Shown here: piece after piece, positions 1 to 32,615 of the stretch
Layout: each line of letters starts with the position of its first letter
How positions within the stretch are numbered: the first letter of the stretch is position 1
Assembly (NCBI GenBank): GCA_937891735.1
Contig: CALAGR010000127.1
Coordinates: forward strand, 1 to 34,056
Length of the DNA: 34,056 bases
Reading direction: 5' to 3'
Origin: an uncultured Pseudomonadota bacterium
GTDB taxonomy: Bacteria > Myxococcota_A > UBA796 > UBA9615
Position numbers and translations under genes: made by a program
The notes under the pieces: model-generated
What the model saw: only the letters and a program-made list of their open reading frames with translations
What the model was told of the DNA's origin: nothing
Database searches by the model: none

Positions 1-164
1 GGTCCCAGCAGCGCAGCGTCCTGGCGGGCCCCGCCCTGCCCCCAGGCCGCGCACGCCCCGACGCCGAACGCCGCCAGGAGCAGCCCCGATCCGACGTCCG
101 CGCCGCACGCGATCATCGCCGCAGTGCTCCAGATGGCGCCCAACGGGGTCAGCCACCACGTCAT
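1..164 (-). CDS. hydrophobic protein, N-terminal fragment cut by window edge
   Basis: This is the first 54 codons of a minus-strand gene that continues past the left edge. The ATG at 164-162 overlaps the TGA of the upstream glycosyltransferase gene (163-161) as ATGA, the usual sign of translational coupling. The visible peptide starts MTWWLTPLGAIWSTA and is rich in Ala, Gly, Leu and Val, compatible with one or two membrane segments. No family can be recognised from so little sequence. As the last visible gene of the 6004-to-1 operon it may be another envelope or membrane protein. The start is well supported by the overlap and continuous frame; the function is unknown. Confidence 0.6.
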   Translation of the reverse strand, partial: MTWWLTPLGAIWSTAAMIACGADVGSGLLLAAFGVGACAAWGQGGARQDAALLG

Positions 165-1156
165 CGTCGGGTGCCCGTGCCCAGCGGCGCGCTCAGCGCG
201 GCGGCCCCGATCACCGCGGACAGCGCGTAGTGCACCCCGGCGGAGTAGACCGCGAACCGCAGCCCGTCCTCGCGCCGCACATACCTCAGGAAGCCGCCCG
301 TGCTGGCCAGCCAGACCGCGTCGCAGGCCAGCGCCGGCAGAAGGAGCGGCGGGAACAGCAGGCTCCCGGCGTGGCTGGCCACTCCCCCCAGGGCCGCGAC
401 CGCCGCGGCGCCGGAGCGGGAGTTCGCCTGGCCCGACGAGAACCCGCGCTGCTCCGGGGCGAGGCGCACCCACATCCTGGTGCGGCCCCAGTAGTTGCGG
501 GCCACCGTCGACAACCCCGGGAAGTGGTGCCGGCCCGACAGCCGGTCATCGAAGCGGATCACGATCCCCTGGGCGCGGAGCCTGCCGGACAGCTCGTAGT
601 CCTCGACGTTGCCGCCGTCGTACCCCTCATCGAAGCCTCCGGAGGCGTGAAAGGCGCCCCGTCGGACCGCGGCCAGGGCCCCCTGCAGGTGGGTGCTGTG
701 CCCGCTCCGGGCGCCCGTGATCTCCCAGCAGTGCCAGGTCCACCGCGCCTTGTAGCGGGCGAACGCGCCGGGGTTGGCGGGCTCTGCGGTGTAGCGCCCG
801 GTGGCGGCCTGGACCGAGGGATCTGCGAAGAGCGCCGCGGCCCCGGCCACCAGCCCGGGCTCGGGGATCACGTCCGAGTCGAGAAACAGCAGCACCTCCG
901 CCGCGCTGTGTTCGGCCCCGGTGTTGCGCGCCGCCGCCGCTCCCCGGTTGGTGGCGTGCCGCACGACCCGCGCACCTGCGGCCTCCGCGATCTGCCCGGT
1001 GGTGTCGGGGGAGGCGTCGTCGACCACGAGGATCTCGAAGGCCGGCGCCCCGACCTGACGCTCCAGCCCCTGCAGGCAGGCGGGCAGGTGTCGCGCCGCC
1101 CGCCAGGCGGGGATGATCACCGACACGGCGGGAGGCTGACTGGTCCGAGGCGGCAT
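161..1156 (-). CDS. GT2-family glycosyltransferase with C-terminal membrane segments
   Basis: The 331-residue protein begins with a GT-A fold of family GT2: VSVIIPAW near residue 11, the nucleotide-binding VVDDAS at about 44-49, and FLDSD at about 91-95, whose DSD is the expected metal-binding DxD motif. A later GGFDEGYDGGNVEDYELS segment matches the acceptor/catalytic-base ED region. The last about 100 residues contain hydrophobic stretches that would anchor it in the inner membrane. It should transfer a sugar from a nucleotide-sugar at the cytoplasmic face; donor and acceptor cannot be read. It starts at ATG 1156, 39 bases after the upstream radical SAM gene, and its stop overlaps the next gene. 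An extracellular polysaccharide, LPS or glycolipid role is possible. Confidence 0.85.
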   Translation of the reverse strand: MPPRTSQPPAVSVIIPAWRAARHLPACLQGLERQVGAPAFEILVVDDASPDTTGQIAEAAGARVVRHATNRGAAAARNTGAEHSAAEVLLFLDSDVIPEPGLVAGAAALFADPSVQAATGRYTAEPANPGAFARYKARWTWHCWEITGARSGHSTHLQGALAAVRRGAFHASGGFDEGYDGGNVEDYELSGRLRAQGIVIRFDDRLSGRHHFPGLSTVARNYWGRTRMWVRLAPEQRGFSSGQANSRSGAAAVAALGGVASHAGSLLFPPLLLPALACDAVWLASTGGFLRYVRREDGLRFAVYSAGVHYALSAVIGAAALSAPLGTGTRR

Positions 1157-1195
1157 CGGCGCATTCTGCCGCTCGTGGGGCCGCGCGCCCAGCAG

Positions 1196-2653
1196 CTACA
1201 TGGTTCCGGGGTCGAGCGTGCCGCCGCGATTCGTCCAGTAGTTCGTAGTCAGCGGGATCAGGCGAGCCATGTCGCGCAGGTCGATCTGCCCGGTCCGCAC
1301 GAGGCCTGCGGCGTAGTGCGCCTTGAAGATCAGCTCGAAACCGACGTTCGGGGGCAGCTTGATCGCCTGACGGACCACCGGGCGCAGCCACGGGAAGGTC
1401 ACGAGCACCGGCAGGAGCTTCTGGAAGTTGCACAGCTCCTCCTTCCGGTCGAGCTTCAATGGCGTGTCGATGAAGTAGCTGTACTGGAAGTCCTTGTCGC
1501 CGCCGTCCGCCCCCAGGTAGCCGTTCTCGATGCTCCAGGACTCCAGCGTGGTGCCCGGGTAGGGCTGGCAGATCGACGCCCACGCGTGGTCCGAGCCCAT
1601 GGCGATGTTCAGGTCCGCCGTCTGGAACGCCATGTCCACCGTCTCGCCCGGGATCCCGACGATGTTGAAGGTGTACAGCTTGATGCCGGCCTCCTTGATC
1701 AGCCGGCCCGCGATCCGCATGCCTTCGTTGTCCAGGCGCCCCTTCTTGAGCACGCCCACCCGCAGTTCCTCCACGCCGCTCTCGAGGCCCACCTTGATGA
1801 GCTTGCAGTTCGCCTCCTTGAGGGACTGCACGACCTCCTTGGTGACGAGGTCGGGCCGCAGCAGGCAGGAGAACGGCAGCCCGATCTCGGCGGCGTACCG
1901 CGTCAGGAACTCCTTGCCCCACTTGCGGTAGTTGAGGACGAAGATGTCGTCGGCGAAGCCGATCTGACGGACCCAGGGGTAGTTCGCCTGGATCTCCTTG
2001 ATCTCCTCGATCATGGAGGCCACGGGCTTCTGGCGCACGTACTTGCCCTTGCCGCGGTACATCTCCTGCATCGTGACGTTGAAGCAGAACGTGCACTTGT
2101 AGGGGCAGCCCCGGGCGCTCATCACCGACACCGTGCGTCGCTTGCGCACGAAGTCGTAGTGGTCGTAGACCGAGCGGTCCGGGAAGGGCCACTGCTCCGG
2201 CTCCTGCTCCAGGACCCGCAGCGGGTTGTAGATCGGCGTGCCGTCGTCGTCCCGCCAGCCCAGGTTGGGGATCCCGCTGGGATCGGTGCCGTCCCGCAGG
2301 GCCCGCGCCAGCTCCACCAGGCAGTCCTCGCCCTCGCCGACGCAGATGTAGTCCAGGCAGTCGTTCTCTTCGAGCACCCGCGGATAGAAGGTGGGATGGG
2401 GGCCCCCCATCACCACGGTGGTGCTCCACCGGGCCTTGACCTGCCGGGCGAGGGCGAGCTGCCACACGTGCTGGCCGGTCGTCGCCGACAGGCACAGCAC
2501 ATCGGGCTGCTGCCGCCGCAGCGCCTTGAGCATGTCGCGCTCGGCGGGATCGATCAGGACATGGGTGGTGTGGCCGTCCGCCTTGAGCACCGCGGACAGG
2601 CACATCGTGGCGAGGTTGGGGATCGGGTCCTTCTGGACGAAGACGAAGTGCAC
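1196..2653 (-). CDS. cobalamin-binding-type radical SAM protein (B12-rSAM)
   Basis: This 485-residue protein has an N-terminal Rossmann-like region of the B12-binding type (about 1-130, with VVMGGPHPTFYP and VGEGED signatures) followed by a radical SAM core. The RGCPYKCTFC segment gives the CX3CX2C cluster ligands at about C183, C187 and C190. LESGVEELR and IPGE follow, with a late PYPGTTLES segment common in this class. The classical DxHxxG cobalamin motif is absent, as in many class B members. Such enzymes methylate unactivated carbon or phosphorus, or rearrange or cyclise substrates. The start is GTG 2653, only 4 bases after the stop of the SPASM gene. Neighbouring glycosyltransferases suggest a lipid or glycan substrate, but this is inference. 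Confidence 0.88.
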   Translation of the reverse strand: MHFVFVQKDPIPNLATMCLSAVLKADGHTTHVLIDPAERDMLKALRRQQPDVLCLSATTGQHVWQLALARQVKARWSTTVVMGGPHPTFYPRVLEENDCLDYICVGEGEDCLVELARALRDGTDPSGIPNLGWRDDDGTPIYNPLRVLEQEPEQWPFPDRSVYDHYDFVRKRRTVSVMSARGCPYKCTFCFNVTMQEMYRGKGKYVRQKPVASMIEEIKEIQANYPWVRQIGFADDIFVLNYRKWGKEFLTRYAAEIGLPFSCLLRPDLVTKEVVQSLKEANCKLIKVGLESGVEELRVGVLKKGRLDNEGMRIAGRLIKEAGIKLYTFNIVGIPGETVDMAFQTADLNIAMGSDHAWASICQPYPGTTLESWSIENGYLGADGGDKDFQYSYFIDTPLKLDRKEELCNFQKLLPVLVTFPWLRPVVRQAIKLPPNVGFELIFKAHYAAGLVRTGQIDLRDMARLIPLTTNYWTNRGGTLDPGTM

Positions 2654-2657
2654 GCGC

Positions 2658-3689
2658 TCAGTCCCACAACAGCCGGCCGCGGGCCAGGTTCGACGCTGCG
2701 CGCATCGCCTGTCGCGGCCGCAGGCCGAGCAGCAGGTTCAACTCCTGGGGACCCTTGAACCAGCACGCCTGGCATCCGGACCGGTCGGGCAGGGCCCCGA
2801 AGGCGCGCTCCCAGCCGACGGTGGGGCCGTGGCGATCCGCGGCCACGTACTCCTCCTCGGAGCAGCAGGGCACCACGTACCCCTCGGGCGTCACCTCGCA
2901 GAACAGGCGTCCAGCCCAGCACTTCAGGCCGAAGGGCTTGCCGGGCCAGGTCTGACGGATCGCCTCGAGGTAGTCGGCGCTGCACGACACCGGTCGACCC
3001 GCCATCTTCTCGCCGATCAGCCAGTCCACGGCCTCCGCCATCGCCTGCTGGCGCGGCACCAGGCCGTCGGCGATCTCCGCTCCGCCCAGGCGCGTCTCGA
3101 TGACCGGCTGGAACGCCACGCCCGCGCCCAGCTGCTCGCCGAGCTGGAGCAGATCATCCATCATCGACCGGTTGCGCTCGTTGAGCACGCACAGCAGGCA
3201 CACCGCGACGTCGTGGCTGCGCAGCAGCTCCAGCCCCCGGATCGCCGCCTCGTAGCTCCCCTGTCGCCCGACCACCCGGTCGTGTTCGACGCGATCCCCG
3301 TGGATCGAGCAGATCACCAGATCCAGATCGCGCAGCTCGTCGATCCGCTCGCTGATGCGGGTGCCGTTGGTCACCATCGACCGGTGGAAGCCCAGGCGCC
3401 GTCCCGCGGCGATGTATTCGCCCAGGCTCTTGACCAGGGTCGGCTCGCCGCCGTTGAAGACCCACCACCGCGTGCCCATGCGGGCGAAGGACTCCATCAT
3501 GCCCACCACCTGCTCGGAGGCCATGTGCCCCGACTCGGCGTGGATCCGCGTGCAGAAGCCGCACTCCACGTTGCAGTGGTAGGTGAGCAGGTGGGTCACC
3601 TTGAGCGGCACGGAGCGGCCCACTCGCGCGGAGGCCAGAGAACCGACGATCTGGAGTGGGCGCGCCGGGAGCGGCATGCCGGGCAGCAT
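2658..3689 (-). CDS. radical SAM protein with SPASM-like C-terminus
   Basis: The 343-residue protein carries the radical SAM triad in YHCNVECGFC (C39, C43, C46) and the SAM-contacting NGGEP at about 79-83. The C-terminal third has further cysteines (about C257, C264, C275, C276, C306, C309) in a pattern typical of SPASM or twitch domains that hold auxiliary Fe-S clusters. Family members modify peptides, sugars or small molecules; no precursor peptide gene is visible here. I chose ATG 3689 because a longer in-frame reading to 4274 lies wholly inside the GtrB-like gene in another frame. A second Met at 3677 is an alternative start. It lies 32 bases downstream of the glycosyltransferase gene and 4 bases upstream of the B12-rSAM gene. 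Confidence 0.85.
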   Translation of the reverse strand: MLPGMPLPARPLQIVGSLASARVGRSVPLKVTHLLTYHCNVECGFCTRIHAESGHMASEQVVGMMESFARMGTRWWVFNGGEPTLVKSLGEYIAAGRRLGFHRSMVTNGTRISERIDELRDLDLVICSIHGDRVEHDRVVGRQGSYEAAIRGLELLRSHDVAVCLLCVLNERNRSMMDDLLQLGEQLGAGVAFQPVIETRLGGAEIADGLVPRQQAMAEAVDWLIGEKMAGRPVSCSADYLEAIRQTWPGKPFGLKCWAGRLFCEVTPEGYVVPCCSEEEYVAADRHGPTVGWERAFGALPDRSGCQACWFKGPQELNLLLGLRPRQAMRAASNLARGRLLWD

Positions 3690-3721
3690 AGCCACCAAAC
3701 CCGGGGGTCGCGGCTGCTCCC

Positions 3722-4738
3722 TCAGCGGGCGTCGGCGCCCGTTTCTGACCGCGCCGGGTCGCCCTCGATGGACTCGCCCAGCACGAAGGTGCGCGTCCGG
3801 CTCTGGCCGTCCACCGACGCCCGCAGACGCTCCAGGGTGCTCAGGGCCAGGCACAGCAGCCCGAAGCCCGCGAGCCCCAGGGTGCTCAGGCCGAGCTCCC
3901 ACAGCTGTCCGGTGCGCTGTTGGACCACGTGCACCAGCAGGATCGCGCCCGCCCCCGTGCCCAGGAGCAGGGCGAGCAGCCCCACCGGGGTCAGGAGCGG
4001 CGCCACGGTCTTCAGGATCCGGGGGAGCAGCACGGCGCCCACGAGGTCGTTGAGCCCCTGCAGGTACCGAAACGCCCCGTAGCGGGACCGGCCAAAAGCC
4101 CGCCGGGCGTGTCGGACCCGCACCTCGCCCACCCGGAACCCGCAGCGCCACGCCTGCACGGGGATGAAGCGGTGCATGCCTTCGGCGAGGACCAGCCGGG
4201 CTGCCACCTCCCTGCGCATGGCCTTGAAGCCGCAGTTCACGTCGTGCACCCGCAGCCCCGAGAACGCGGAGCACAGGCCGTTGAAGACGCGCGACACGGC
4301 CACCTTCAGGGCGGCGTCCTGCCGCTCGATGCGCCAGGCCTGGGCCAGATCGAGCTCGTCCCGGAGCACGGGTCCGAGCAGCACCGGCAGTTCCTCGGGC
4401 AGGTCCTGCAGATCCGCGTCCATCAGCACGACGTACCGGCCCCGCGCCGCCTGGATCCCACAGGCCAGGGCCGCGGACTTGCCCTGGTGACCGGCCAGGA
4501 TCCGGCCCCGCACCCGGGGCTCCTGCGCGCTGAGGGCGCGGATCACCGCGGCCGTGTCGTCGGTGCTGCCGTCGTCGATGACGATCAGCTCCCAGCTCAG
4601 CCCCTGTGCGTTGAGCGCCTCGCGCACCCGGAGGGCGAGCACGTCCAGGGAGCTCGCCTCGTTCCGCGCGGGCACGAGCACGGATACGTCCGGTCCATCG
4701 GTCCGCCCGCCGGCCAGGACGCGGGGGGGCGAGGCCAC
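3722..4738 (-). CDS. GtrB/DPM1-like GT2 glycosyltransferase (polyprenyl-phosphate type)
   Basis: The 338-residue protein has the layout of polyprenyl-phosphate glycosyltransferases: VSVLVPARNEASS near residue 18, IDDGSTDDT at about 54-62, and LMDADLQDLPEE at about 105-116 (catalytic DxD). Two hydrophobic segments near 245-270 and 278-302 follow. DPM1/GtrB enzymes load a sugar from UDP or GDP onto undecaprenyl or dolichyl phosphate on the cytoplasmic face for later transfer outside. The GTG start at 4738 lies one base after the DUF2752 stop. Its neighbours suggest it supplies an activated sugar for the same envelope product. Annotation as a general GT2 protein is the safer fallback. Confidence 0.85.
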   Translation of the reverse strand: MASPPRVLAGGRTDGPDVSVLVPARNEASSLDVLALRVREALNAQGLSWELIVIDDGSTDDTAAVIRALSAQEPRVRGRILAGHQGKSAALACGIQAARGRYVVLMDADLQDLPEELPVLLGPVLRDELDLAQAWRIERQDAALKVAVSRVFNGLCSAFSGLRVHDVNCGFKAMRREVAARLVLAEGMHRFIPVQAWRCGFRVGEVRVRHARRAFGRSRYGAFRYLQGLNDLVGAVLLPRILKTVAPLLTPVGLLALLLGTGAGAILLVHVVQQRTGQLWELGLSTLGLAGFGLLCLALSTLERLRASVDGQSRTRTFVLGESIEGDPARSETGADAR

Positions 4739-4739
4739 C

Positions 4740-5153
4740 TCAGACCCTCCCGGCGGTGAACACGAACGCCCAGTTCGCCGCCACGCCCAGCACGAGCCCG
4801 ATGCGCATGCCGCGCCGCTCGGCGGCCGAGGTGTCCAGGCGCAATGCAGGTCCGCCCGCCATGCGCACCAGCAGGTAGGCCGTGCCCACCACCGTGATGG
4901 CGCACAGCGCCGCGCCGGCGGGGTTCCAGGCCAGCGCCTGCCGCAGCTCTCCGTGCACCAGCGACACCCAGGACCGAGTCATCCCGCACGTCAGGCAGGG
5001 CAGCCCCGTCAGGTGCTTGAACGTGCACAGGGGCGGCAGCCGGCCGAACGGGAAGAAGCGTGCGAGGCACAGCAGCAGCACGCCGGACAGGGTGAGCCCG
5101 GACGAGACGAACGGCTCCAGCCGCCGCGCCGAGGGGTCCAGCCGCAGCAGCAT
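4740..5153 (-). CDS. DUF2752 family membrane protein
   Basis: The 137-residue protein carries the DUF2752 signature: a Cys in CTFKHLTG followed by GLPCLTCGMTRS, then WNPAG. It has about three membrane segments (approximately residues 12-30, 75-98 and 115-132). Its role is unknown across the family. I chose ATG 5153, which overlaps the TGA of the upstream gene as TGATG; a longer reading to 5237 would lie inside that upstream gene. The stop is one base before the GtrB-like gene. The paired cysteines could bind metal or take part in thiol chemistry, but no biochemical role is established. Confidence 0.82.
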   Translation of the reverse strand: MLLRLDPSARRLEPFVSSGLTLSGVLLLCLARFFPFGRLPPLCTFKHLTGLPCLTCGMTRSWVSLVHGELRQALAWNPAGAALCAITVVGTAYLLVRMAGGPALRLDTSAAERRGMRIGLVLGVAANWAFVFTAGRV

Positions 5154-6004
5154 CAGGCGCCTGCCATCGCCCCGAGGAAGCCCACCGCGAACGCCGCCAC
5201 GAACCCGCAGCAGCAGCAGCCCAGGGCCGGCCCCCAAGCCGCCACCGCGCCCCTCCAGCCGTCGGTCTCATGCACCGCCGCGAGGCCGACGGACTGCACG
5301 CCGAGCAGCCAGGGCAGCGCGACCCAGTTCACGAGCGGGACGATCTCCCAGAACCGGATCCCGCCCGCGTACAGGCAGGCCTTCAAGGTGGTCTCCAGGG
5401 GGTACTTCGCGCCCCCCACCAGGGACAGGATCGCGTGCTGGACCACCCCGAAGGTCATCGTCATGAGGATCCAGATCGCCGGCCCGAACAGCAGGTTCAG
5501 TCCGATGCCCTTGACGGCCTTGGCGACGCTGGGCTGAAGGCCCTCGCGCAGCTCGTCCAGCGCGTCGGCGGGGATCTGGCTGCCGAACTGGCCGAGCAGC
5601 GCGATGAACGAGTCCCCGAACGCCGCGAGCATCAGCTGGCCGTAGATGGCACCCATGGCCACCGCCGGCACGAGCACGAGGGCCTGGAACATCGCGGCCT
5701 CCGAGACGGTGCCGCCGTTGCCGAGCGAGGCGAAGAACTGGCCCGGGCGCGCAGACACCTCCAGCACCGTCTGCCAGGCGGCGGGCAGGATCCCCAGCTC
5801 GTTCCTGCGTTCCCACGGGTTGCTCCCGATCTGGACCCGCTGCTCCCGGATGCACGTGGCGCAGATCTGCTGATCCCCATTGAGCGTGACGCACTCGGGG
5901 CAGGCGAAGGTGCCGCAGTGATCGCAGGTGGCCACCGCGCCCCGTTCGGGATGCACCGCGCAGAAGGCGCCCGTAGGGGAGTAGTCGATGGTCTGAGCAG
6001 TCAC
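5153..6004 (-). CDS. zinc-finger (B-box-like) plus YIP1-domain membrane protein
   Basis: The 283-residue protein starts with a compact Cys/His cluster (C15, H18, C27, C30, C35, C38, C48, C51), consistent with two bound zinc ions in a B-box-like fold. The remainder has about four or five hydrophobic segments in the arrangement of YIP1-family proteins. The last membrane segment contains four consecutive cysteines (GCCCCGF), which is unusual. The function of bacterial zinc-finger/YIP1 proteins is not established. It is the first gene of the minus-strand operon, starting at GTG 6004 with a GGAG sequence about 9 bases upstream. The gene downstream overlaps its stop by one base. Confidence 0.78.
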   Translation of the reverse strand: MTAQTIDYSPTGAFCAVHPERGAVATCDHCGTFACPECVTLNGDQQICATCIREQRVQIGSNPWERRNELGILPAAWQTVLEVSARPGQFFASLGNGGTVSEAAMFQALVLVPAVAMGAIYGQLMLAAFGDSFIALLGQFGSQIPADALDELREGLQPSVAKAVKGIGLNLLFGPAIWILMTMTFGVVQHAILSLVGGAKYPLETTLKACLYAGGIRFWEIVPLVNWVALPWLLGVQSVGLAAVHETDGWRGAVAAWGPALGCCCCGFVAAFAVGFLGAMAGA

Positions 6005-6111
6005 TGGGCACGTCTCCGGAGGAGGCCGCGGCGCGCGGCGCCATCAAGGGTAGCGATCTGGCACCGCAGGGCGCCAGCGATCGACCTGGACCGCTGCTAA
6101 CCTGCCGCGCA

Positions 6112-7527
6112 ATGAGGATCCTCCTGATCAATCCCGCGATGAACCTCGAGACCCTTGGCAAGTTCAAGGGGCTCCTGGAACCCATGCCCGTCATCGGGCT
6201 CGCCTACATCGCGGCCGTGCTCGAGCAGGAGGGCCACCGCGTACAGGCGATCGATCAGTTCACCTACGGGATGTCCGTCGCGGAGATGATGGAGCAGGTC
6301 AAGGCCTTCCGGCCGGACGTGCTCGGCATCGGCATGCTGACGCCGTCCGCGCCGGTGTCGCTGCACATCTCCAACGAGACCAAGGCGGCCCTGCCGGACT
6401 GCAAGGTCGTCGTGGGCAACGTGCACGCCGACATCTTCTACAAGGAGATCCTGACCACCTCGGCGGTGGACTTCGTGGTGCACGGGGAGGGCGAGTACAC
6501 CATCAAGGAGCTGGTCCAGGCCTTCGAGCGCGGCCAGACGGACTACGCCCGGATCCAGGGCATCAGCTACATCGACGAGGCCACCGGCGAGGTCGTCAAG
6601 ACCGCGGCCCGCCCCGTGATCGAGGACCTGGACGCGCTGCCCTACCCGGCGTGGCACCTGTTCCCCTACACGCGCTACGGCCTGCTGCCCTTCGCCGACG
6701 TGGCCCGGCCGGTGCTGTCGATGACCGGCAGCCGCGGCTGTCCGTACCGCTGCGAGTTCTGCTCGCTGCTGTACACCGGCTCGAACTACCGCAAGCGCGA
6801 CCCCATCAAGATCGTGGACGAGTACGAGTACCTGCACGAGCGCTACGGCGTGAAGCAGATCGGCTTCGTCGATCCGATCTTCCCGCTCAACAAGAAGATC
6901 CTGTTCCAGTTCTGCGAGGAACTGATGCGGCGGGGCCTGCACAAGAAGCTCGTGTGGCTGTCCGAGACCCGGGTGGACCGGCTGGATCGCGAGTCCCTTC
7001 GCATCATGCGGGCCTCGGGCTGCCGCCGGATCCTGCTGGGGGTGGAGTCCGGCGTCGATCTGCTGCTCGAGAACGTCAACAAGACCTTCACGACCGAGAC
7101 CACGCGCCGCGCCGTCCGGCTGATGCGCGAGGAGAAGATCGAGTCCGTGGGTCTCTTCATGATCGGCCTGCCCGGCGAGACGGAGGAGATGACCCGTCAG
7201 ACCATCGACTTCGCCAAGTCCCTCGACCTGGACTTCGCGAAGTTCGCGATCACCGTCCCGTTCCCGGGCAGCCAGATGTTCGAGGACCTGCGGCGCGAGG
7301 GACGCCTGGACCGGGACGACTGGGAGAACTGGACCACGTTCCAGCCCGATCCCGCGAAGATGGTGTTCGTGCCCCGGGACACGTCCCCGGAGTTCCTGAT
7401 CGAGATGCAGCGGGTGGCTCTTCGGGAGTTCTTCCTGCGCCCGAAGATGATCTACCGGCACCTGTTCGAGATCCGGACCATCAACGCGCGCCAGCTCTGG
7501 CACGGCGTGAAGGGCATGTTCCTGTAG
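6112..7527 (+). CDS. cobalamin-binding-type radical SAM protein (B12-rSAM)
   Basis: This 471-residue protein opens with a B12-binding-like domain (MRILLINPAM, then HGEGEYT near 124-130) and continues with a radical SAM core whose ligands sit in SRGCPYRCEFC (C210, C214, C217). LGVESGVD, IGLPGETEE and VPFPGSQMFEDL follow in the order usual for the class. No DxHxxG motif is present. The gene is transcribed away from the envelope-glycan operon, separated by 107 bases, and is probably functionally linked to it. No Shine-Dalgarno sequence precedes the ATG; instead TAACCT lies 8 bases upstream, compatible with a leaderless transcript. The reaction and substrate are unknown. Confidence 0.88.
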   Translation: MRILLINPAMNLETLGKFKGLLEPMPVIGLAYIAAVLEQEGHRVQAIDQFTYGMSVAEMMEQVKAFRPDVLGIGMLTPSAPVSLHISNETKAALPDCKVVVGNVHADIFYKEILTTSAVDFVVHGEGEYTIKELVQAFERGQTDYARIQGISYIDEATGEVVKTAARPVIEDLDALPYPAWHLFPYTRYGLLPFADVARPVLSMTGSRGCPYRCEFCSLLYTGSNYRKRDPIKIVDEYEYLHERYGVKQIGFVDPIFPLNKKILFQFCEELMRRGLHKKLVWLSETRVDRLDRESLRIMRASGCRRILLGVESGVDLLLENVNKTFTTETTRRAVRLMREEKIESVGLFMIGLPGETEEMTRQTIDFAKSLDLDFAKFAITVPFPGSQMFEDLRREGRLDRDDWENWTTFQPDPAKMVFVPRDTSPEFLIEMQRVALREFFLRPKMIYRHLFEIRTINARQLWHGVKGMFL

Positions 7528-7566
7528 CCCACCGGCTCACGGGTTGAGGCTGTCCCTCTTTACACT

Positions 7567-9207
7567 GTGGCTCCGGATCACCGCGTGTACCTGACCCTCC
7601 CCGCGCCGGCACGAGCCCTGTTCGTCGCCGCCTGCTTCGTCTGCCTGGGGGGCTGCTCCGCGGGCGTGGCGACCGTCGTGGCGCAGGTGCAGGACCCCGG
7701 CGGCGGGGTGCTCCTGAGCTTTGAGACGGAGGGGCGCAACACCTTCACCACGACGGGCCAGAGCTGCGAGGCCGGCAAGGACGGCGGCTGCAGCCTGGTT
7801 CTGCCCGCCGCCGACCTGATCCCGGGCTGGAACCTGCTCGCCATTCAGACCGAGCGCCGCACCGGGCAGCCTCTGGTGGCCCGCTTCTTCGTGCCCGACG
7901 CGTTCTTCGGCCGGGAGTGCACCGTCAAGCCCCGGGGCCTGACCGGCGATCCCGACGAGCTGAGCTTCGACGTGGAGTGCACCTTCGCCGAGGGCTTCAA
8001 GGGGGTCATCGACGACGTCCCGATGACCGGCGGCAAGGCGACCGTGTCGGCCATGCGGTGCCTGGGGGACCTGGCGTCCCTGGACGTGGATCTGGAGCGG
8101 CCCCTGCTGCAGGGCATGGTGCCGCTGGACGTGGTGGGACGTCGCGGACGGCTGCGCCGCGGGATCCCCGTCGCCGTGCCCGCGCCGGTGGTGCAGGTGA
8201 GCCTGCAGGGGTGGGCGAGCCCGTGGTTCGAGGAGAGCATGCCGCTGCAGGTCGAGGCGGAGCCCGACTCCACGGTCACGGTGAACGGCAGGCAGGAGAC
8301 CCCCTCGGGGGACGGCGGCGTGGTCACCGTGCAGATCCCGATCACCATCGGGGCCAACGAGGTCGTGGTCGAGGTCAACAAGGCCGGCCACGCCACCGCG
8401 CGCCACGCGCTCGCCATCGAAGGGCGGTATCCGAGCACGCCGCTGTTCCTCGATCAGCAGTACGAGTCGCCGCTGACCACGGACCGGGAGCTGCTGCCGC
8501 TGTCCGGTCGCACCCACCCGGACGCGAAGCTGTACCTCAGCGGCCGCCCGGTGGACCACCACAAGGGACGGTTTGAGCTCGACGCGTACCTCGAGGAGGG
8601 CAAGAACGACGTGCAGCTGCTCGCCGTGGTGCAAGCGCAGCAGGGGCGCCGCGCGAGGCCCCTGACCCGCGTGGACTTCGAGGTCCATCGCACCCTCGCC
8701 GTGCCCCCCACCTTCGCACCGTCGGCCGACGTCGCGGGGCCGGACGCGGGGCCGCCCCTGGTGGAGGTCGCCCGCGACCCCTGGGCCCACGTCGGCTCGA
8801 ACATCAGCTTTCCGATGCGCATCGAGGGGATCGCCGAGAACCTGTCGCTCGCGGGGGAGTGCAGCGCGCGCATCGAGGGCCTGGCCTGCTCGGAGCGGGT
8901 CGGCGGGCCGGTGATGCTCGGCTGGTCGGTGGTGGAAGGCTGGGTCTGCATCGGCGAGGAGATCCCCGTCGTGGTCCAGGCCGCGGTCTGCCCCCGCGCG
9001 GTGGTGGGTGACGACGTGCAGATCCAGGGAGTGATCCGCGGCGCCCTCGGGGGCCGGCACCACGGAATGACCACGGACCGGCCGAGTATCGACGCCAGCG
9101 CCGCCCATCGCCTGCCCGCGACCCGGCTGCTGCCGCCCGAGCGGCGTGACCGGTTCCAGCCGGACCTGCTCGTGGAGAAGAAGCGCTCCGGGGGGCGGCG
9201 TCGATGA
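7567..9207 (+). CDS. predicted lipoprotein with Ig-like domains
   Basis: The 546-residue protein has a signal peptide ending in CLGGC, a good lipobox (Leu-Gly-Gly-Cys). Mature sequence is rich in beta-strand-type segments. Two central stretches resemble bacterial Ig-like or glucodextranase-B-like folds, for example STVTVNGRQETPSGDGG followed by IGANEVVVEVNKAGH, and SGRTHPDAKLYLSGRPVD followed by EEGKNDVQLLAVV. No catalytic motif is visible. The GTG at 7567 is the first start; GTG 7585 gives a shorter, more conventional signal peptide and is equally possible. Its TGA overlaps the ATG of the next gene, so the two products are probably made together. A surface binding or sensing role beside the kinase-like protein is inferred. 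Confidence 0.72.
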   Translation: MAPDHRVYLTLPAPARALFVAACFVCLGGCSAGVATVVAQVQDPGGGVLLSFETEGRNTFTTTGQSCEAGKDGGCSLVLPAADLIPGWNLLAIQTERRTGQPLVARFFVPDAFFGRECTVKPRGLTGDPDELSFDVECTFAEGFKGVIDDVPMTGGKATVSAMRCLGDLASLDVDLERPLLQGMVPLDVVGRRGRLRRGIPVAVPAPVVQVSLQGWASPWFEESMPLQVEAEPDSTVTVNGRQETPSGDGGVVTVQIPITIGANEVVVEVNKAGHATARHALAIEGRYPSTPLFLDQQYESPLTTDRELLPLSGRTHPDAKLYLSGRPVDHHKGRFELDAYLEEGKNDVQLLAVVQAQQGRRARPLTRVDFEVHRTLAVPPTFAPSADVAGPDAGPPLVEVARDPWAHVGSNISFPMRIEGIAENLSLAGECSARIEGLACSERVGGPVMLGWSVVEGWVCIGEEIPVVVQAAVCPRAVVGDDVQIQGVIRGALGGRHHGMTTDRPSIDASAAHRLPATRLLPPERRDRFQPDLLVEKKRSGGRRR

Positions 9208-10910
9208 ACCTCACGGTGCCGGGCTACGCAGTCGAGCGGCCGCTGGGTGAAGGGCGCACCGGCGAGGTCTTCCTCGCGCTGCGGGAGAGCGACGCCGTCC
9301 AGGTCGCGCTGCGCAGGGTCTCACCCGCGCTGGCCAGCAAGCCCGGCGTCCGGACCGCCTTGAGGGCCTTGAAGGCGGAGTGCGGCGTGCTGCGGGCGCC
9401 GACCCTGGTGCCGATCCTCGATGTGTTCGAGCACCAGCAGGACGTCTTCGTGGTCGAGCAGTTCGTCGAAGGCGTGGCCCTGTCCGACCGGCTCGCCCTC
9501 GGCGCGCTCCCCCCGGAAGACGTGCACGCCCTGGCCATGGACCTGATGGACGCGCTGTCCGACCTGCACCGGCAGGGGGTGGTGCACGGCGACGTGCGGC
9601 CGTCCAACATCCTGATGACCTCCCGGGGCGCACGCCTCGTGGGGATCGGGGTCGCCGCCCGCACCCGGCGCCGGGACCACGCCGCGGGCTTCCTGCTGCG
9701 GGACCCGTACGACGCACCCGAGATGGACCAGGGCGTCGTGAGCCCCCTGACCGACATCTATGCCCTGGGCGCCGTGTTGATGCACGCCGTCACGGGCGAC
9801 GAGGGCCCGTACGACTTCTTCGCCGACGCCGACGCAGTCGTGGACGAGCTGCTCGAGGCGATCTCGGCCGCCCCCGAGAGTCGCCCCACGACCGTGGACG
9901 GCTTGCGCCTGGCGTTCATCGACGCCGAGAAGACCCGGGGCGCGGTGCCCGCCAGGGAGCAGCCGCTCCCTTCGCCCAAGGCGCCGGCCGAGGCGGACGT
10001 GCCGGCCCCCGCGGCCCAGGCCGAGTCGCCCCGCCCCGCCGCCCCGCCGCGCACCACACCTCTCCCGCCGAAGCCGACGAAGGCCGTGTCGGCCCGCAAG
10101 GACGGCACCGTCGCGCCCGGGGAGCGCTTCGAGGAACTCCTGGACCGGGCCCGCCCGATGATCCCCGCCGCCGGGGCCGCCGTGGGGCTGCTGGTGCTCG
10201 CGGTGCTGGTGCTGCTCCTGCTGCCCGAACGACCCGACGGCATGATCCTGGTGGAGCCGGCCCCGGGGCTGCTGGGAGATCCGGCCGGCCAGCGCGACGA
10301 ACGGCCGGGCTTCCAGGCTTCGCTGTCCCCGTTCTGGCTCGATCGGGTGGAGGTGACGGCCGCCGCGTACCGGACCTGCGTGGACGCGGGGCTCTGCACC
10401 CCGCCGGGGTTGGACTGGCCCGCCGCCGACCGCCTGCCCATGACCGGCGTGACCTGGCTCCAGGCCCAGGCGTACTGCGTATCCAGGGACAAGCGGCTTC
10501 CCACCGAGAACGAGTGGGAGACCGCGGCCCGGCTGCCCGGGCGGTATCCCTGGGGCGACGCGGAGCCCGGGTGCCAGCTCGCGCGCTACGGCGTCCTGCC
10601 GGGCGGGCCCTGCGCCTCGGCGGATGGGGGCTCTGGAGCCGCTCCCGTGCCCGATCTGGACGCGCTGGAGGAGGGCGCCTTCGCGGACCTCGCGGGCAAC
10701 GTCTGGGAGCTCGTGGACGCGGATCACCAGCCCCAGCGCGGGCCCGGCTCCGGCGAGGCCACGGTCGCGGGCCAGAGCACGCTGCGGGTGATCAAGGGCG
10801 GGGCCTGGAGCGCGGGGCCCGAGCACCTGCGGCCGGCGGCGCGCATCGGCGTGCGCATCGACTACGCGGCGGAGGACGTCGGCTTCCGTTGCGGCCGCTC
10901 CGAGGAGTAG
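9204..10910 (+). CDS. membrane pseudokinase fused to SUMF1/FGE-like domain
   Basis: The 568-residue protein has an N-terminal protein-kinase fold (about 7-245), a Pro/Ala-rich linker, one membrane segment (about 320-340) and a C-terminal FGE-sulfatase (SUMF1) domain (about 347-565, with RLPTENEWETAAR, GNVWELV, GGAWS and GFRCG). Kinase landmarks are degenerate: the Gly loop GEGRTGEV is kept, the VAIK lysine is Arg37, the HRD motif is HGD (128-130) with Asp kept, and DFG is GIG (147-149), so the metal-binding Asp is lost. APE (171-173) and TDIYALG remain. The SUMF1 domain lacks the paired cysteines that follow GGS in true formylglycine oxidases. Topology places the kinase fold inside and the SUMF1 domain outside. 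It is likely a signalling scaffold rather than an enzyme. Confidence 0.85.
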   Translation: MNLTVPGYAVERPLGEGRTGEVFLALRESDAVQVALRRVSPALASKPGVRTALRALKAECGVLRAPTLVPILDVFEHQQDVFVVEQFVEGVALSDRLALGALPPEDVHALAMDLMDALSDLHRQGVVHGDVRPSNILMTSRGARLVGIGVAARTRRRDHAAGFLLRDPYDAPEMDQGVVSPLTDIYALGAVLMHAVTGDEGPYDFFADADAVVDELLEAISAAPESRPTTVDGLRLAFIDAEKTRGAVPAREQPLPSPKAPAEADVPAPAAQAESPRPAAPPRTTPLPPKPTKAVSARKDGTVAPGERFEELLDRARPMIPAAGAAVGLLVLAVLVLLLLPERPDGMILVEPAPGLLGDPAGQRDERPGFQASLSPFWLDRVEVTAAAYRTCVDAGLCTPPGLDWPAADRLPMTGVTWLQAQAYCVSRDKRLPTENEWETAARLPGRYPWGDAEPGCQLARYGVLPGGPCASADGGSGAAPVPDLDALEEGAFADLAGNVWELVDADHQPQRGPGSGEATVAGQSTLRVIKGGAWSAGPEHLRPAARIGVRIDYAAEDVGFRCGRSEE

Positions 10911-10919
10911 GCCCCGGGA

Positions 10920-12458
10920 TCAGGTGTCGTACCACTCCGGCTTGACCAGGTTGGTGTACGACTGCTCCTTGATGGGGTTGATCCGCTGCTTGACGGCGTC
11001 CCAGGTCACGCCGAGCGCCACCTTGAGCCACCACTGGTACATCTGCCGCTTGTAGCGATTGCCCGAGGACAGGCCCTTGAGCAGCCACTTCGGGTTCACG
11101 AACTGGCGGTTGATGTCGTACAGCGCGCGGCTGATCTCCTCGCGGGTCATGTAGTCGCTGTCCATCATCGGAGTCATCCAGTCGAACTCCGTGAAGTCGT
11201 CCAGGCTGATCCAGCCCTCCTGCATGGCCTCGTCGAACAGGGGCGTGCCCGGGACCGGCGTGATCGGGTGGAACGCCGGGTAGTCCACGTTGAGCTCCTT
11301 GGCCAGCTCGGCCTGGCGGAACATGGACTCGCGGGTCTCGTACTTGGTGCCCACGATGAAGGTGGCCTGCTTGAAGATCTGGGGGTACTTGTCGAGGATC
11401 CGGAAGGTCTCGCGGAGCTGGTCGTTGTTGTAGAAGCCCTTGTTGAACTCCTTGAGGCGCTCGTCCTCGGCCCGCTCCACGCCGATACACAGGTGGCGCA
11501 GCCCGGCCGCCACGAGCTTCTCGAAGATGCCGCGCTTCTCGTCCCGGATGATGCAGTCGCTGCGCATGAACGCGAACCAGGTGATGTCCATACCGGTCCG
11601 CAGGATCTCGTCGGCGAACTGGTCGTTCCACCGCGCGTCGATGTTCCAGGACTCGTCCACCCAGACGTAGCAGCGCTTGTCGTACTTGTAATAGAGCTCC
11701 TGGATCTCCTCGATGGTCTTGCCCACCGACTTCGTGCGCCAGCGCGGCCGCAGGTGGATCAGCCCGTCTTCGTCCTCGTCCCGATGGGCCATCTGCGTCC
11801 ACCAGACACAGAAGCTGCACGACGCGGTGCAGCCGCGGCTGTGGTGGATCGTGCTCCCGCCGGGCGAGAACGACAGCTTGCTGGTGCCGTACAGGTGCAT
11901 CGGCATGAGGTCGTAGGCGGGCATGGCGAGGGAGTCCAGGTCCTCGATCAGGTGCCGCGGCGCCGTCTTGATGAGCTCGGCGTCCGGGCCGTCCCCCTCG
12001 CGGTACACGATGCCGGGGACCTGGGACAGGTCCGGCTTGTCCTGTCCGAGTTCCTCGAGCAGCGAAACCAGCGTGGCCTCGCCCTCGGCGCGCACGACGA
12101 AGTCGATGGGGTGTTCGCGCATGTACTTGTCGTACAGGTTGGTGAAGTGGGCGCCCCCTACGAGCCGCTTGGCCCGGGGGATCACGTCCGCCGCCATCTC
12201 CACCACCCGCATGGCCTCGTGGGCGTACAGGGCGTGGTTCTCGCCGATGCAGAGCACGTCAGGGTCCTCGTCCCGCATCGTCTGCTCGAGGGACTGCCAC
12301 CCCATCTTCAGGGGCATGCAGTCGTACACGCTGACCTCGTGACCAGCCTTTCGGGCGGCCGCCGCGAGGTAGGCCAGCGACTGCGGCACGAGGTAGTTGT
12401 CGCCCTCACTGACGAAGGGCCAGTAGTAGCGCGGGCTGAACACGAACATCACGCGCAT
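10920..12458 (-). CDS. cobalamin-binding-type radical SAM protein (B12-rSAM)
   Basis: The 512-residue protein has a B12-binding-like N-terminus (MRVMFVFSPRYYWPF; VGGAHFTNLYD; AEGEATL) and a radical SAM core with ligands in SRGCTASCSFC (C210, C214, C217). The TPVPGTPLFDEAMQEG segment matches the other two B12-type proteins in this window. No DxHxxG motif is seen. The last about 70 residues are basic and aromatic and match no domain I recognise. The ATG at 12458 has GAGGAG 8 bases upstream. It follows a SAM methyltransferase gene by 41 bases and may be the last gene of the yebC-ruvCAB series. It converges on the pseudokinase gene with 9 bases between stops. The substrate is unknown. Confidence 0.87.
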   Translation of the reverse strand: MRVMFVFSPRYYWPFVSEGDNYLVPQSLAYLAAAARKAGHEVSVYDCMPLKMGWQSLEQTMRDEDPDVLCIGENHALYAHEAMRVVEMAADVIPRAKRLVGGAHFTNLYDKYMREHPIDFVVRAEGEATLVSLLEELGQDKPDLSQVPGIVYREGDGPDAELIKTAPRHLIEDLDSLAMPAYDLMPMHLYGTSKLSFSPGGSTIHHSRGCTASCSFCVWWTQMAHRDEDEDGLIHLRPRWRTKSVGKTIEEIQELYYKYDKRCYVWVDESWNIDARWNDQFADEILRTGMDITWFAFMRSDCIIRDEKRGIFEKLVAAGLRHLCIGVERAEDERLKEFNKGFYNNDQLRETFRILDKYPQIFKQATFIVGTKYETRESMFRQAELAKELNVDYPAFHPITPVPGTPLFDEAMQEGWISLDDFTEFDWMTPMMDSDYMTREEISRALYDINRQFVNPKWLLKGLSSGNRYKRQMYQWWLKVALGVTWDAVKQRINPIKEQSYTNLVKPEWYDT

Positions 12459-12499: not shown

Positions 12500-13360
12500 T
12501 CAGCGAGCCCGCGCGACAGCGAGCCAGGCCCGGGGCAGAACGCCGAGGTCCGGGTGCTGCCGCAGCTGGGCTTCCAGGGCGAGCAGGCTCTCGTCGTAGA
12601 CCGCGCCGTCGAGGCGCCCGGGATCCGCCAGCGCGCCCAGGGGTCCGTCCAGGACGTAGTGGCTGCCCTCGATCAGCACCGGGTGAAACCCGCCGACCAC
12701 CAGCAGATCGTGCAGCTCCTGGCGGGTGTAGCAGCGCACGTGGCGCGCCCCCGGTTCGACGAGCTCGTGCCGCTGCAGGGCACGCTCCACCGCCTCGGGC
12801 GGCCCGGGGTCGCTCAGGAACGCTCCGGGCCAGGCCTCCACCGACACGATCAAGGGCGCTCCGGGGGTCATGCGCTCCGCCAGCGCGGCGAGGACCCGCC
12901 CCGGATCCGGCAGGTAGCAGAGCAGCTCGATGGCGAGGGCCGCGTCCACCGGTTGATCGACGAAGTCCTGCAGGTCGCAGACGTCGCCCCAGATCAGCTT
13001 CGCACCCGGGACGTGGCGGGCCGCGGCCTCGAGCGACGGACGGGTCGCGTCCACGCCCACCACCTCGTAGCCCTCGGCGGTCAGGGGGGCCATGAAGCGG
13101 CCGGAGCCGCAGGCCAGATCGAGGATCCGCGCGGGCGCCGGGGGGAGGAACCGGTCGAACCGGGCGCGGTACAGGCGGGTCATCAACGCCTTCCAGCCGT
13201 GGTTCGGGGAGTCCGGGCGCAGGAAGTCCATGGCCTCGGGCCAGGCAGCCCACCCCTGCAGCATTCCACCCAGGTTGTGCAGCAGCTGCTCGTGGACGTC
13301 TGGCGATTCGCCGTCGTGCAGGCCACGAAGCCAGCTGGGGGCGTGGTCCTGCACGGTCAC
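12500..13360 (-). CDS. class I SAM-dependent methyltransferase
   Basis: The 286-residue protein has a Rossmann-type methyltransferase core: motif I ILDLACGSGRF at about 79-89, the acidic end of strand beta-2 in VVGVDATRPSLE, GDVCDL, and ALAIELLCYLPDPGRVLAAL for motifs III and IV. The first 60 residues are helical and may form the substrate lid; the substrate cannot be named. It starts at GTG 13360, overlapping the TGA of the LpxC-like gene as GTGA. The same operon continues 41 bases downstream with a B12-type radical SAM gene, so the two could act on one metabolite. This is inference from position only. Confidence 0.82.
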   Translation of the reverse strand: MTVQDHAPSWLRGLHDGESPDVHEQLLHNLGGMLQGWAAWPEAMDFLRPDSPNHGWKALMTRLYRARFDRFLPPAPARILDLACGSGRFMAPLTAEGYEVVGVDATRPSLEAAARHVPGAKLIWGDVCDLQDFVDQPVDAALAIELLCYLPDPGRVLAALAERMTPGAPLIVSVEAWPGAFLSDPGPPEAVERALQRHELVEPGARHVRCYTRQELHDLLVVGGFHPVLIEGSHYVLDGPLGALADPGRLDGAVYDESLLALEAQLRQHPDLGVLPRAWLAVARAR

Positions 13361-14097
13361 GCCGCGCGGTCCAGGGGGCGCCGGAGCGTGCCGCGGTGCA
13401 GGGCCGCCTCGATCAGCGCTGGGTTGCGGTCATGGCTGGGATCGTGCGCCGACAGGGTCCCCTCGAAGGGCCCGAGGGCGCGGTAGGCACCGAGATCACC
13501 GAGCAGATCCAGCAGCTTGTGCCAGGCCGGCTCCGAAGGGAGGCGCCGGCCTCGTCCCCCCAGCAGGCGGGTCTGGCCGTCCAGCACGAGCGCCGAACGG
13601 GGCCGGGCTCCGGGGAACAGCCCTGCGTCGCGGGCGGCTCGGGCGGCGGGTCCTGCGATGAAGGTGCGGGCGCGGGCGGGGCCGAAGCCGCCGGCCCACG
13701 CCACGGTCTGGCCCTGCCAGGTGACCTCGACCCGCAAGCGACCGGGGGCCGCATCGAGCCCCGCGTGGATCAGCGCCCGGACGAAGGGCAGCGCCGAGCC
13801 GTCGAGCAGCGGGACCTCACCGTCGGGGGCGTCGACGTCCACATCGTCCACGTCGGCCATCACCAGGGCGCCCAGCAGGTGCTCGGGCAGCACGAGCGCG
13901 TCCGCCCCGGCGACGAGGCGCGAGCGGCGGGGCAGGGGAGCCAGCTGCTCTGGACCCAGGCGGTGCCAGGCGCCGCCCACCCGCCAGCGCCACCCCGCGC
14001 CAGGGGACCCGGGCCCCAGACGCACCGAACAGGCCACGCCGCTGAAGAGGCCCACCCCCCGCAGCGCCACGGGGCGGAGCAGGGTCCGGCGGCTCAC
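13357..14097 (-). CDS. short, divergent LpxC-like deacetylase
   Basis: At 246 residues this is about 55 shorter than typical LpxC, which removes the acetyl group from UDP-3-O-acyl-GlcNAc in lipid A synthesis using zinc. LpxC landmarks occur in order: GVGLFSG (15-21), PEHLLGALVMADVDDV (71-86, catalytic Glu72 and zinc ligand His73), VPLLDGSALPF, ARTF (143-146), WHKLLDLLGDL (192-202, zinc ligands His193 and Asp197) and SAHDPSHDRN (216-225, His218 as the catalytic histidine). All expected active-site residues seem present, so it may be active. The start is GTG 14097, overlapping the DUF192 TGA as GTGA. It could be the main LpxC or a paralogue with another sugar-nucleotide substrate; the window cannot decide. 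Confidence 0.78.
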   Translation of the reverse strand: MSRRTLLRPVALRGVGLFSGVACSVRLGPGSPGAGWRWRVGGAWHRLGPEQLAPLPRRSRLVAGADALVLPEHLLGALVMADVDDVDVDAPDGEVPLLDGSALPFVRALIHAGLDAAPGRLRVEVTWQGQTVAWAGGFGPARARTFIAGPAARAARDAGLFPGARPRSALVLDGQTRLLGGRGRRLPSEPAWHKLLDLLGDLGAYRALGPFEGTLSAHDPSHDRNPALIEAALHRGTLRRPLDRAA

Positions 14098-14591
14098 CGT
14101 GCCTCCGGTTGGAGCTCCGGCGGCAGCTCGATGGTCACCTTGGCGCCCACCTCGATGCCCTTGGCGGCGAACCAGCCCTGGTTCATCTCCAGCGCGTAGG
14201 GCACGGCCTTGGGCGACGGGTGCGAGGTCGTGGTCAGGGGCTGCATGTCTTCGAGGTGCACGATCACCCCCGCCTTGTCGATGAACGCGATGGTCAGCGG
14301 CAGGTAGGTGTTCTTCATCCAGAAGGACAGCGGCTCCGGGTCCTCGTAGACGAACAGCATCCCGCTGTTCTTCGCCATCGTGCGGCGGTACATCAGGCCC
14401 CGGGCCCGGGTGGCCACGGTGCCTGCGACCTCGGCGCGCACGGAGTGGCCGTCCACCGACATCGAGATGACGGGCAACCCGCTGTCCGACCCGGAGCAGC
14501 CGGCGGCGCGCACCGAGAACAGCGTCAGGGCGAGCAGACCCAGGACCGAGAGCAGCCCGGGCATCGCGACAGAGCCACGTTGAAGCGTCAT
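14094..14591 (-). CDS. DUF192 family exported protein
   Basis: The 165-residue protein has an N-terminal hydrophobic export signal ending near AAGC, which could act as a weak lipobox, followed by a DUF192 domain (about 42-160). Typical segments are ARGLMYRRTM, MLFVYEDPEPLSFWMKNT, PLTIAFIDKAG and ALEMNQGWFAAKGI. The function of DUF192 proteins is not established. ATG 14591 overlaps the ruvB TGA as TGATG, and its own TGA overlaps the LpxC-like GTG. It is therefore firmly placed in the ruvCAB series, although nothing in it suggests a recombination role. Confidence 0.85.
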   Translation of the reverse strand: MTLQRGSVAMPGLLSVLGLLALTLFSVRAAGCSGSDSGLPVISMSVDGHSVRAEVAGTVATRARGLMYRRTMAKNSGMLFVYEDPEPLSFWMKNTYLPLTIAFIDKAGVIVHLEDMQPLTTTSHPSPKAVPYALEMNQGWFAAKGIEVGAKVTIELPPELQPEAR

Positions 14592-15619: not shown

Positions 15620-15627
15620 GCCTCTCC

Positions 15628-32579: not shown

Positions 32580-32608
32580 ATGTTAGCGGGCTCGTGTCGC
32601 GGTATCAT
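32580..32608. promoter_or_regulatory. overlapping divergent -10 elements, cinA and MopE-repeat lipoprotein
   Basis: In the 44 bases between cinA and the lipoprotein gene, minus-strand TAACAT (32585-32580) sits 8 bases before the cinA ATG and plus-strand TATCAT (32603-32608) sits 7 bases before the lipoprotein GTG. Neither start has a Shine-Dalgarno sequence. Transcription would begin at or beside the start codons. No good -35 elements are seen, and the two promoters would overlap. Confidence 0.4.
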
Positions 32609-32615
32609 CGCCCCC

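What the first reader, a model, noticed from the sequence alone, without database searches (positions are those of the whole stretch)
1..7527. Possible undescribed envelope pathway: two glycosyltransferases, SPASM and two B12-type radical SAM enzymes, DUF2752 and YIP1 proteins
Six complete minus-strand genes and a seventh at the edge lie from 6004 to 1 with gaps of -4 to 39 bases. A polyprenyl-phosphate-type glycosyltransferase, a SPASM radical SAM protein, a B12-type radical SAM protein and another GT2 enzyme are interleaved with small membrane proteins, and a second B12-type radical SAM gene is divergent. The combination suggests a lipid-linked glycan or lipid whose carbon skeleton is modified by radical chemistry. 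I do not recognise it as a named pathway.
Basis: partly seen in the sequence, partly recalled or inferred. Interest (0 to 1): 0.7.

Follow-up and report, generated by a model that had tools for sequence, protein, structure and literature searches.

The report
Radical-SAM glycan operon before GldFG-type transporter
A myxobacterial relative carries a small conserved operon in which two sugar-transferring enzymes flank two radical-chemistry enzymes, and in sister genera it runs straight into a GldF/GldG-type ABC transporter; it probably builds, chemically edits and exports an unknown lipid-carried sugar, but no product is known.

Summary
In detail: seven minus-strand genes (3-6004) with gaps of -4 to 39 bases, plus a divergent B12-type radical SAM gene. 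Comparison with 74 relatives trims and extends it. The core is GT2a-SPASM-B12a-GT2b (4738 down to 161). It keeps its order in a same-genus genome and in a second genus; its right half is seen in a third. The relatives' contigs run past the window's left edge into a GldF/GldG-like ABC-2 transporter and a DUF4340 gene. A 95%-complete sister genome lacks the searched core genes. The divergent B12 gene (6112-7527) is a class-wide gene that sits elsewhere in the sister genera; YIP1 and DUF2752 stay with a neighbouring locus when the core is absent. GldF-GldG-DUF4340 also follows radical SAM genes in two other families, there with a DegT aminotransferase. No named pathway model is met and no RiPP precursor fits in the operon. 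Best reading: a polyprenyl- or lipid-linked sugar is edited by two radical SAM enzymes and handed to the transporter. The substrate, the reactions and, in this genome, the transporter genes are inferred, not shown.

The parts
3..164 (-). First 54 codons of a gene cut by the contig end; hydrophobic. Relatives have a GldF or a membrane-fused GldG-like gene at this position.
   Evidence: no sequence similarity to the relatives' genes was detected in the 54 codons
161..1156 (-). GT2b: family 2 glycosyltransferase (DSD motif), one C-terminal hydrophobic segment; core gene
   Evidence: Pfam Glycos_transf_2 94.8 bits; orthologues 53-64% only in G001, G003, G005
1196..2653 (-). B12a: B12-binding-domain radical SAM enzyme (CPYKCTFC); core gene
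   Evidence: orthologues 84%, 72%, 82% in G001, G003, G005; nearest named family HpnJ 124 bits against a cut-off of 578; fold like TsrM, MgmA, AprD4
2658..3689 (-). SPASM/twitch-type radical SAM enzyme (CNVECGFC; C-terminal C-x6-C-x10-C and C-x2-C); core gene
   Evidence: orthologues 79% and 68%; fold nearest SkfB, PqqE, BlsE
3722..4738 (-). GT2a: ArnC/GtrB-type (polyprenyl-phosphate) glycosyltransferase with DAD motif and C-terminal membrane segments; core gene
   Evidence: Pfam 106.5 bits; ArnC model 121 bits, below its cut-off of 529; hydropathy
4740..5153 (-). DUF2752 membrane protein; probably co-transcribed, but also present without the core in G002
5153..6004 (-). YIP1-like membrane protein with N-terminal Cys/His (B-box-like) motif; not found in the G003 stretch, present without the core in G002
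   Evidence: Yip1 18.7 bits, sub-threshold; 51% in G001; 32% in G002 beside DUF2752
6112..7527 (+). B12b: BchE-like B12/radical SAM gene, divergent; class-wide gene, judged NOT part of the pathway
   Evidence: 82-91% in all five other family genomes, on other contigs outside the genus
10920..12458 (-). B12c: another class-wide B12/radical SAM gene at the neighbouring locus (MT-B12c), directly upstream of DUF2752 in G003 and of YIP1 in G002; neighbour, probably not part of the pathway

Best explanation
The operon makes and exports a modified lipid-carried sugar. GT2a, an ArnC/GtrB-type enzyme at the membrane, is proposed to load a sugar onto polyprenyl phosphate or another lipid. GT2b adds a second sugar. 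The cytoplasmic radical SAM enzymes (SPASM type and B12 type) change that sugar or its lipid carrier at unactivated carbons, for example by C-methylation, deoxygenation or ring contraction. A GldF/GldG/DUF4340 ABC-2 system encoded directly downstream in relatives then moves or handles the product at the cell envelope. Shown: gene order, its conservation, joint absence in a sister genome, family assignments, and the transporter genes downstream in G001 and G003. Inferred: substrate, reactions, direction of transport, and that this genome carries the same transporter past its contig end.
For: The core keeps order and strand in G001 and G003, with B12a-GT2b-GldF in G005. Identity is high for the radical enzymes (B12a 72-84%, SPASM 68-79%). 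SPASM, B12a and GT2b are absent from the 95%-complete sister G002. Downstream in G003: GldF (TIGR03518 199 bits), GldG (PF09822 136 bits, TIGR03521 147 bits), DUF4340 (123 bits); in G001: a divergent GldG-like fusion (hhalign E 4e-5) and DUF4340 (84 bits). 10 of 37 fetched GldG modules of this clade have radical SAM genes upstream in the same strand run, in families f1, f5 and f7; nine of the ten also have a DegT sugar-aminotransferase-type gene. GT2a resembles ArnC, with C-terminal membrane segments. B12a's closest named family is HpnJ, which acts on the sugar of a glycosylated hopanoid (PMC12583986), and its closest solved sequence is AprD4, which acts on an aminoglycoside. Only 183 of the first 6200 bases are non-coding, leaving no room for a peptide precursor.
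Against: All family scores are far below equivalog cut-offs, so no substrate can be read off. No GT-C transferase, ABC ATPase, flippase or lipid-synthesis gene lies in the operon. G000 shows no copy of G001's GldG-like gene on any contig, and the 54-codon edge fragment does not resemble it. The tree does not place this SPASM protein inside the clade linked to GldFG in f7, so the two linkages may be independent. Most fetched GldG modules (27 of 37) have no radical SAM gene in the same upstream run, a few of them because the contig ends.
Confidence: 0.42

Rival explanations
1. A hopanoid-like or membrane-lipid pathway: the radical SAM enzymes modify the lipid tail or head group and the GT2 enzymes add a sugar head group; the product is a structural membrane glycolipid rather than an exported glycan.
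For: Nearest named family of B12a is HpnJ, and weaker hits to HpnH (SPASM protein) and HpnI (GT2b) occur in the same operon. B12a relatives in G068 and G065 sit next to LPG_synthase_TM membrane proteins.
Against: HpnJ 124/578, HpnH 46/225, HpnI 28/310 bits against cut-offs. No cyclase or HpnK deacetylase in the operon. The transporter linkage is unexplained.
Confidence: 0.22
2. A RiPP or peptide-derived cofactor system (mycofactocin-like): the SPASM and B12 enzymes mature a peptide that GT2b glycosylates and the transporter exports.
For: SPASM and B12 radical SAM enzymes are often RiPP maturases; nearest solved folds include SkfB, PqqE, SuiB. GT2b's top hit is MftF (117 bits) and the SPASM protein hits MftC (70 bits).
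Against: Cut-offs not met (280 and 265). No precursor ORF or RiPP recognition protein in the operon; 183 non-coding bases. The ArnC-like GT2a is unexplained.
Confidence: 0.13
3. No single pathway: the core enzymes and the GldFG-type transporter are neighbours only, and GldFG-DUF4340 is a housekeeping envelope system that happens to follow them.
For: GldG homologues occur in all 74 genomes searched, usually without radical SAM neighbours.
Against: Same order in G003 and, with a divergent GldG, in G001; B12a-GT2b-GldF in G005; radical SAM plus DegT genes directly upstream in two other families.
Confidence: 0.23

Closest known systems
Hopanoid side-chain genes hpnI-hpnK-hpnJ
   Same: A GT2 enzyme and a radical SAM enzyme act in turn on a lipid-borne sugar (PMC12583986); B12a's best named match is HpnJ
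   Different: Scores far below cut-offs; no deacetylase or hopanoid genes in the operon; two GT2s, an extra SPASM enzyme, and a transporter downstream
ArnC/GtrB polyprenyl-phosphate glycosyltransferases
   Same: GT2 domain, DAD motif, C-terminal membrane segments in GT2a
   Different: ArnC model 121 of 529 bits; no Arn pathway genes or GT-C partner in the operon
GldA-GldF-GldG ABC transporter of Flavobacterium
   Same: GldF permease and GldG subunit families in G003; ATPase not encoded beside them (GldA Fjoh_1516, GldF/GldG Fjoh_2722/2721; PMC9127263)
   Different: Accompanied by DUF4340 and radical SAM/sugar enzymes; below NCBIfam GldF/GldG cut-offs; membrane-fused divergent form in G001
Mycofactocin MftC/MftF
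   Same: SPASM radical SAM plus GT2 enzyme in one operon
   Different: No MftA/MftB; scores below cut-offs; B12 radical SAM and second GT2 present
DegT-rSAM-rSAM-GldF-GldG-DUF4340 operons of the same class (L081, L077, L076, L080, L082, L063, L100; shorter in L087, L092)
   Same: Radical SAM and sugar-type enzymes directly upstream of the same transporter module; SPASM proteins are reciprocal best hits
   Different: Aminotransferase in place of GT2 and B12 enzymes; tree does not support one clade for the SPASM proteins

Membership tests
Hopanoid cyclitol-ether genes (HpnH/HpnI/HpnJ) | NCBIfam equivalog cut-offs for HpnJ, HpnI, HpnH | tested here: not met
   124.2/577.6, 28.0/310, 45.8/225.05 bits
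Hopanoid cyclitol-ether genes (HpnH/HpnI/HpnJ) | HpnK deacetylase or squalene-hopene cyclase beside them | tested here: not met
   None among operon genes in the window, G001 or G003; rest of genome not searched
ArnC-type polyprenyl-phosphate glycosyltransferase (GT2a) | GT2 fold with DXD and C-terminal membrane segments | tested here: met
   Pfam 106.5 bits, DAD at 107, segments at about 241-300
ArnC-type polyprenyl-phosphate glycosyltransferase (GT2a) | ArnC equivalog score | tested here: not met
   121.1 of 529 bits
ArnC-type polyprenyl-phosphate glycosyltransferase (GT2a) | Activity on polyprenyl phosphate | not testable with these tools
   Needs an enzyme assay
SPASM/twitch radical SAM enzymes | CxxxCxxC motif | tested here: met
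   CNVECGFC; the three cysteines are invariant in six sequences
SPASM/twitch radical SAM enzymes | C-terminal auxiliary-cluster cysteines | tested here: met
   C257, C264, C275, C306, C309 invariant; Pfam SPASM model itself 16.1 of 21.5 bits
B12-binding radical SAM enzymes (B12a) | B12-binding domain plus radical SAM domain | tested here: met
   64.3 and 71.6 bits; fold like TsrM, MgmA, AprD4
B12-binding radical SAM enzymes (B12a) | Cobalamin actually used | not testable with these tools
   Similar folds are found in enzymes of several kinds; needs purified protein
GldF/GldG transporter (downstream genes of relatives) | ABC-2 permease and PF09822 domains | tested here: met
   G003: PF12679 49.6/27.2, PF09822 136.4/34.7 bits; G001 GldG only by profile comparison, E 4e-5
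GldF/GldG transporter (downstream genes of relatives) | NCBIfam GldF/GldG equivalog cut-offs | tested here: not met
   198.9/288.5 and 146.7/389.85 bits
GldF/GldG transporter (downstream genes of relatives) | Present next to the core in the window's own genome | tested here: inconclusive
   Contig ends after 54 codons; no copy of the G001 gene found elsewhere in G000
Mycofactocin / RiPP cluster | Precursor peptide gene in the operon | tested here: not met
   183 non-coding bases in 1-6200; gaps in G001 and G003 are also short, apart from one 651-base gap upstream of DUF2752 in G001 that holds an opposite-strand gene call
Mycofactocin / RiPP cluster | MftC and MftF cut-offs | tested here: not met
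   70.1/265 and 117.3/280 bits

The most novel reading that the evidence does not exclude
GldF-GldG-DUF4340 transporters in this class act on envelope sugars or glycolipids that radical SAM enzymes have edited, and different families pair the same transporter with different editing sets (GT2 + SPASM + B12 here; DegT + one or two radical SAM enzymes elsewhere). That would give the GldFG family a substrate class.
Probability: 0.22. Interest if true: 0.68.

Novelty: new variant of a known kind. Interest (0 to 1): 0.45.

Why it matters
The papers read here give no substrate for GldF/GldG-type transporters. If operons that place sugar-loading and radical SAM enzymes directly in front of such a transporter make its cargo, the substrate question becomes a lipid and glycan comparison of core and transporter mutants. 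It would also point to envelope sugars with radical-edited carbon skeletons in an uncultured myxobacterial group.

Tried and rejected
Treating B12b (6112-7527) as part of the pathway: rejected, class-wide and on other contigs in the sister genera. Treating YIP1 and DUF2752 as core: rejected, both remain beside MT-B12c in G002 without the core. Orthology of the SPASM protein with the GldFG-linked radical SAM of f7: reciprocal best hits, but the tree keeps it apart on a long branch; left open. Using the B12a paralogues (41-43%) to infer function: they sit beside an HU-type gene, without glycosyltransferases. Continuing the operon in G000: GldG-like search empty, and the other DUF4340-bearing contigs fetched (C283, C491, C496) show no end fragment that would continue it. 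Relatives in the genome collection: only two loci, both of this family. Plasmids: only distant B12 radical SAM proteins at 29-31%; the one locus read lies among transposase genes. Papers: none of the held texts joined radical SAM, gliding motility, ABC transporter and aminotransferase, or GldG and DUF4340.
Full report
What is there. The window is the whole of contig C127 of a 7.9 Mb, 542-contig genome, so its left edge is a contig end. B12b (6112-7527) is divergent. Pfam gives clear GT2, radical SAM, B12-binding and DUF2752 matches; SPASM (16.1 of 21.5 bits) and Yip1 (18.7 of 28.6) are below threshold. Aligned relatives conserve the three cysteines of the CxxxCxxC motif and five C-terminal cysteines of the SPASM protein.

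Conservation. SPASM, B12a and GT2b were searched in 74 relatives. Close orthologues are found only in the window's family: G001 (same genus; SPASM 79%, B12a 84%, GT2b 64%), G003 (68%, 72%, 53%) and, on a short contig, G005 (B12a 82% over its C-terminal half, GT2b 63%). DUF2752-GT2a-SPASM-B12a-GT2b keep order and strand in G001 (L012) and G003 (L014). G002, of the same family and 95% complete, has no close orthologue of the three searched core genes. It keeps MT-B12c-YIP1-DUF2752 in one run beside ruvAB (L123). So YIP1 and DUF2752 belong at least partly to that neighbouring locus, and the pathway proper is GT2a-SPASM-B12a-GT2b. A scan of 379 genomes of the phylum found no further close orthologue of the SPASM protein, and the genome-contig collection gave only two loci, both of this family.

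The divergent gene. B12b has matches at E <= 1e-90 in 47 of 74 genomes, at 82-91% identity in all five other family genomes; in G002, G003, G004 and G005 it lies on other contigs than the operon or its neighbouring locus. B12c (10920-12458) is likewise near-universal outside family f3, and the two lie a few kilobases apart in several genomes. Both are BchE-like but below that model's cut-off (263 and 203 of 481 bits). They look like class-level core genes with their own role.

Past the left edge. In G003, GT2b is followed by a GldF permease (TIGR03518, 199 bits), GldG (PF09822 136 bits; TIGR03521 147 bits) and DUF4340 (123 bits). In G005 a GldF-like gene follows GT2b. In G001 a 556-aa protein with an N-terminal bundle of hydrophobic segments follows, then DUF4340 (84 bits). 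The 556-aa protein has no Pfam match, but it aligns to a GldG profile over 350 columns (hhalign E 4e-5, probability 69%). No ABC ATPase is adjacent. In Flavobacterium the gldA locus number is also far from gldFG (PMC9127263). In the window's own genome the gene is cut after 54 codons, which show no detectable similarity to the relatives' genes, and no other contig carries the G001 GldG-like gene. The transporter is therefore inferred for this genome.

A wider link. Every one of the 74 genomes has a PF09822 match. Of 37 fetched GldG genes of the relevant clade, 10 have radical SAM genes upstream in the same strand run: seven in f7 with the pattern DegT-rSAM-rSAM-GldF-GldG-DUF4340, two in f5 with DegT-rSAM before GldF (one with a further gene between), and G003. 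Some of these loci were fetched because of SPASM hits and the genomes are related, so this is not a formal test, but it covers three families. The f7 SPASM protein and the window's are reciprocal best hits, with nothing at E <= 1e-12 in G002; yet the tree puts the window's clade on a long branch outside the class clade. Independent recruitment is possible.

How it probably works. GT2a resembles ArnC/GtrB enzymes, which load sugars on polyprenyl phosphate (established knowledge of the family). B12a has the class-B radical SAM fold; its closest solved sequence is AprD4, an aminoglycoside-modifying enzyme, and its closest named family is HpnJ, which forms the cyclitol ether from a hopanoid-borne glucosamine (PMC12583986). 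The SPASM protein is closest in fold to SkfB, PqqE and BlsE. The simplest reading is a lipid-carried sugar that is extended by GT2b, edited by the two radical enzymes and passed to the transporter. None of the chemistry is shown. Rivals are a membrane glycolipid, a peptide product (no room for a precursor) and mere proximity of core and transporter.

Verdict. A real, narrowly distributed, conserved operon of unknown product. The distance from known systems is moderate: every part belongs to a known superfamily, and the combination matches no named pathway tested here.

Noticed in passing
window 6112-7527, 10920-12458, 12500-16254: Two BchE-like B12/radical SAM genes (B12b, B12c) are class-wide and close to each other in several genomes; B12c follows ruvAB-DUF192-LpxC-methyltransferase, and B12b sits near enolase in f7. 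Both are missing from family f3. Function unknown.
   Followed up: partly
window 13357-14097: The LpxC here is shortened (246 aa): about 75 model positions in the middle are missing, also in G005, while some conserved His/Asp positions remain. Not checked whether the genome has another LpxC.
   Followed up: partly
L067 (G006:C165) 735-11610: A same-order genome has five B12-type radical SAM genes, a SPASM radical SAM and a second radical SAM gene in one minus-strand run.
   Followed up: no
L063, L076, L077, L080, L081, L082, L100; L087, L092: Operons DegT-rSAM(-rSAM)-GldF-GldG-DUF4340 in families f7 and f5; the same radical SAM pair lies away from the transporter in other genomes.
   Followed up: partly
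L022, L023, L024, L025: A second, more diverged B12a paralogue (41-43%) occurs in G000, G001, G002 and G003 next to an HU-type gene.
   Followed up: partly
window 7567-10910: A lipoprotein-like gene and a protein-kinase/FGE-like gene follow B12b; both are next to B12b in G001, and a fragment of the kinase/FGE-like gene lies beside B12c in G005.
   Followed up: no
window 32580-34055: Protein with seven MopE-type putative metal-binding stretches at the right contig end.
   Followed up: no
L012 6161-6622: A NUDIX-like gene call on the opposite strand lies between YIP1 and DUF2752 in G001, so YIP1 is not tightly joined to the operon there.
   Followed up: no
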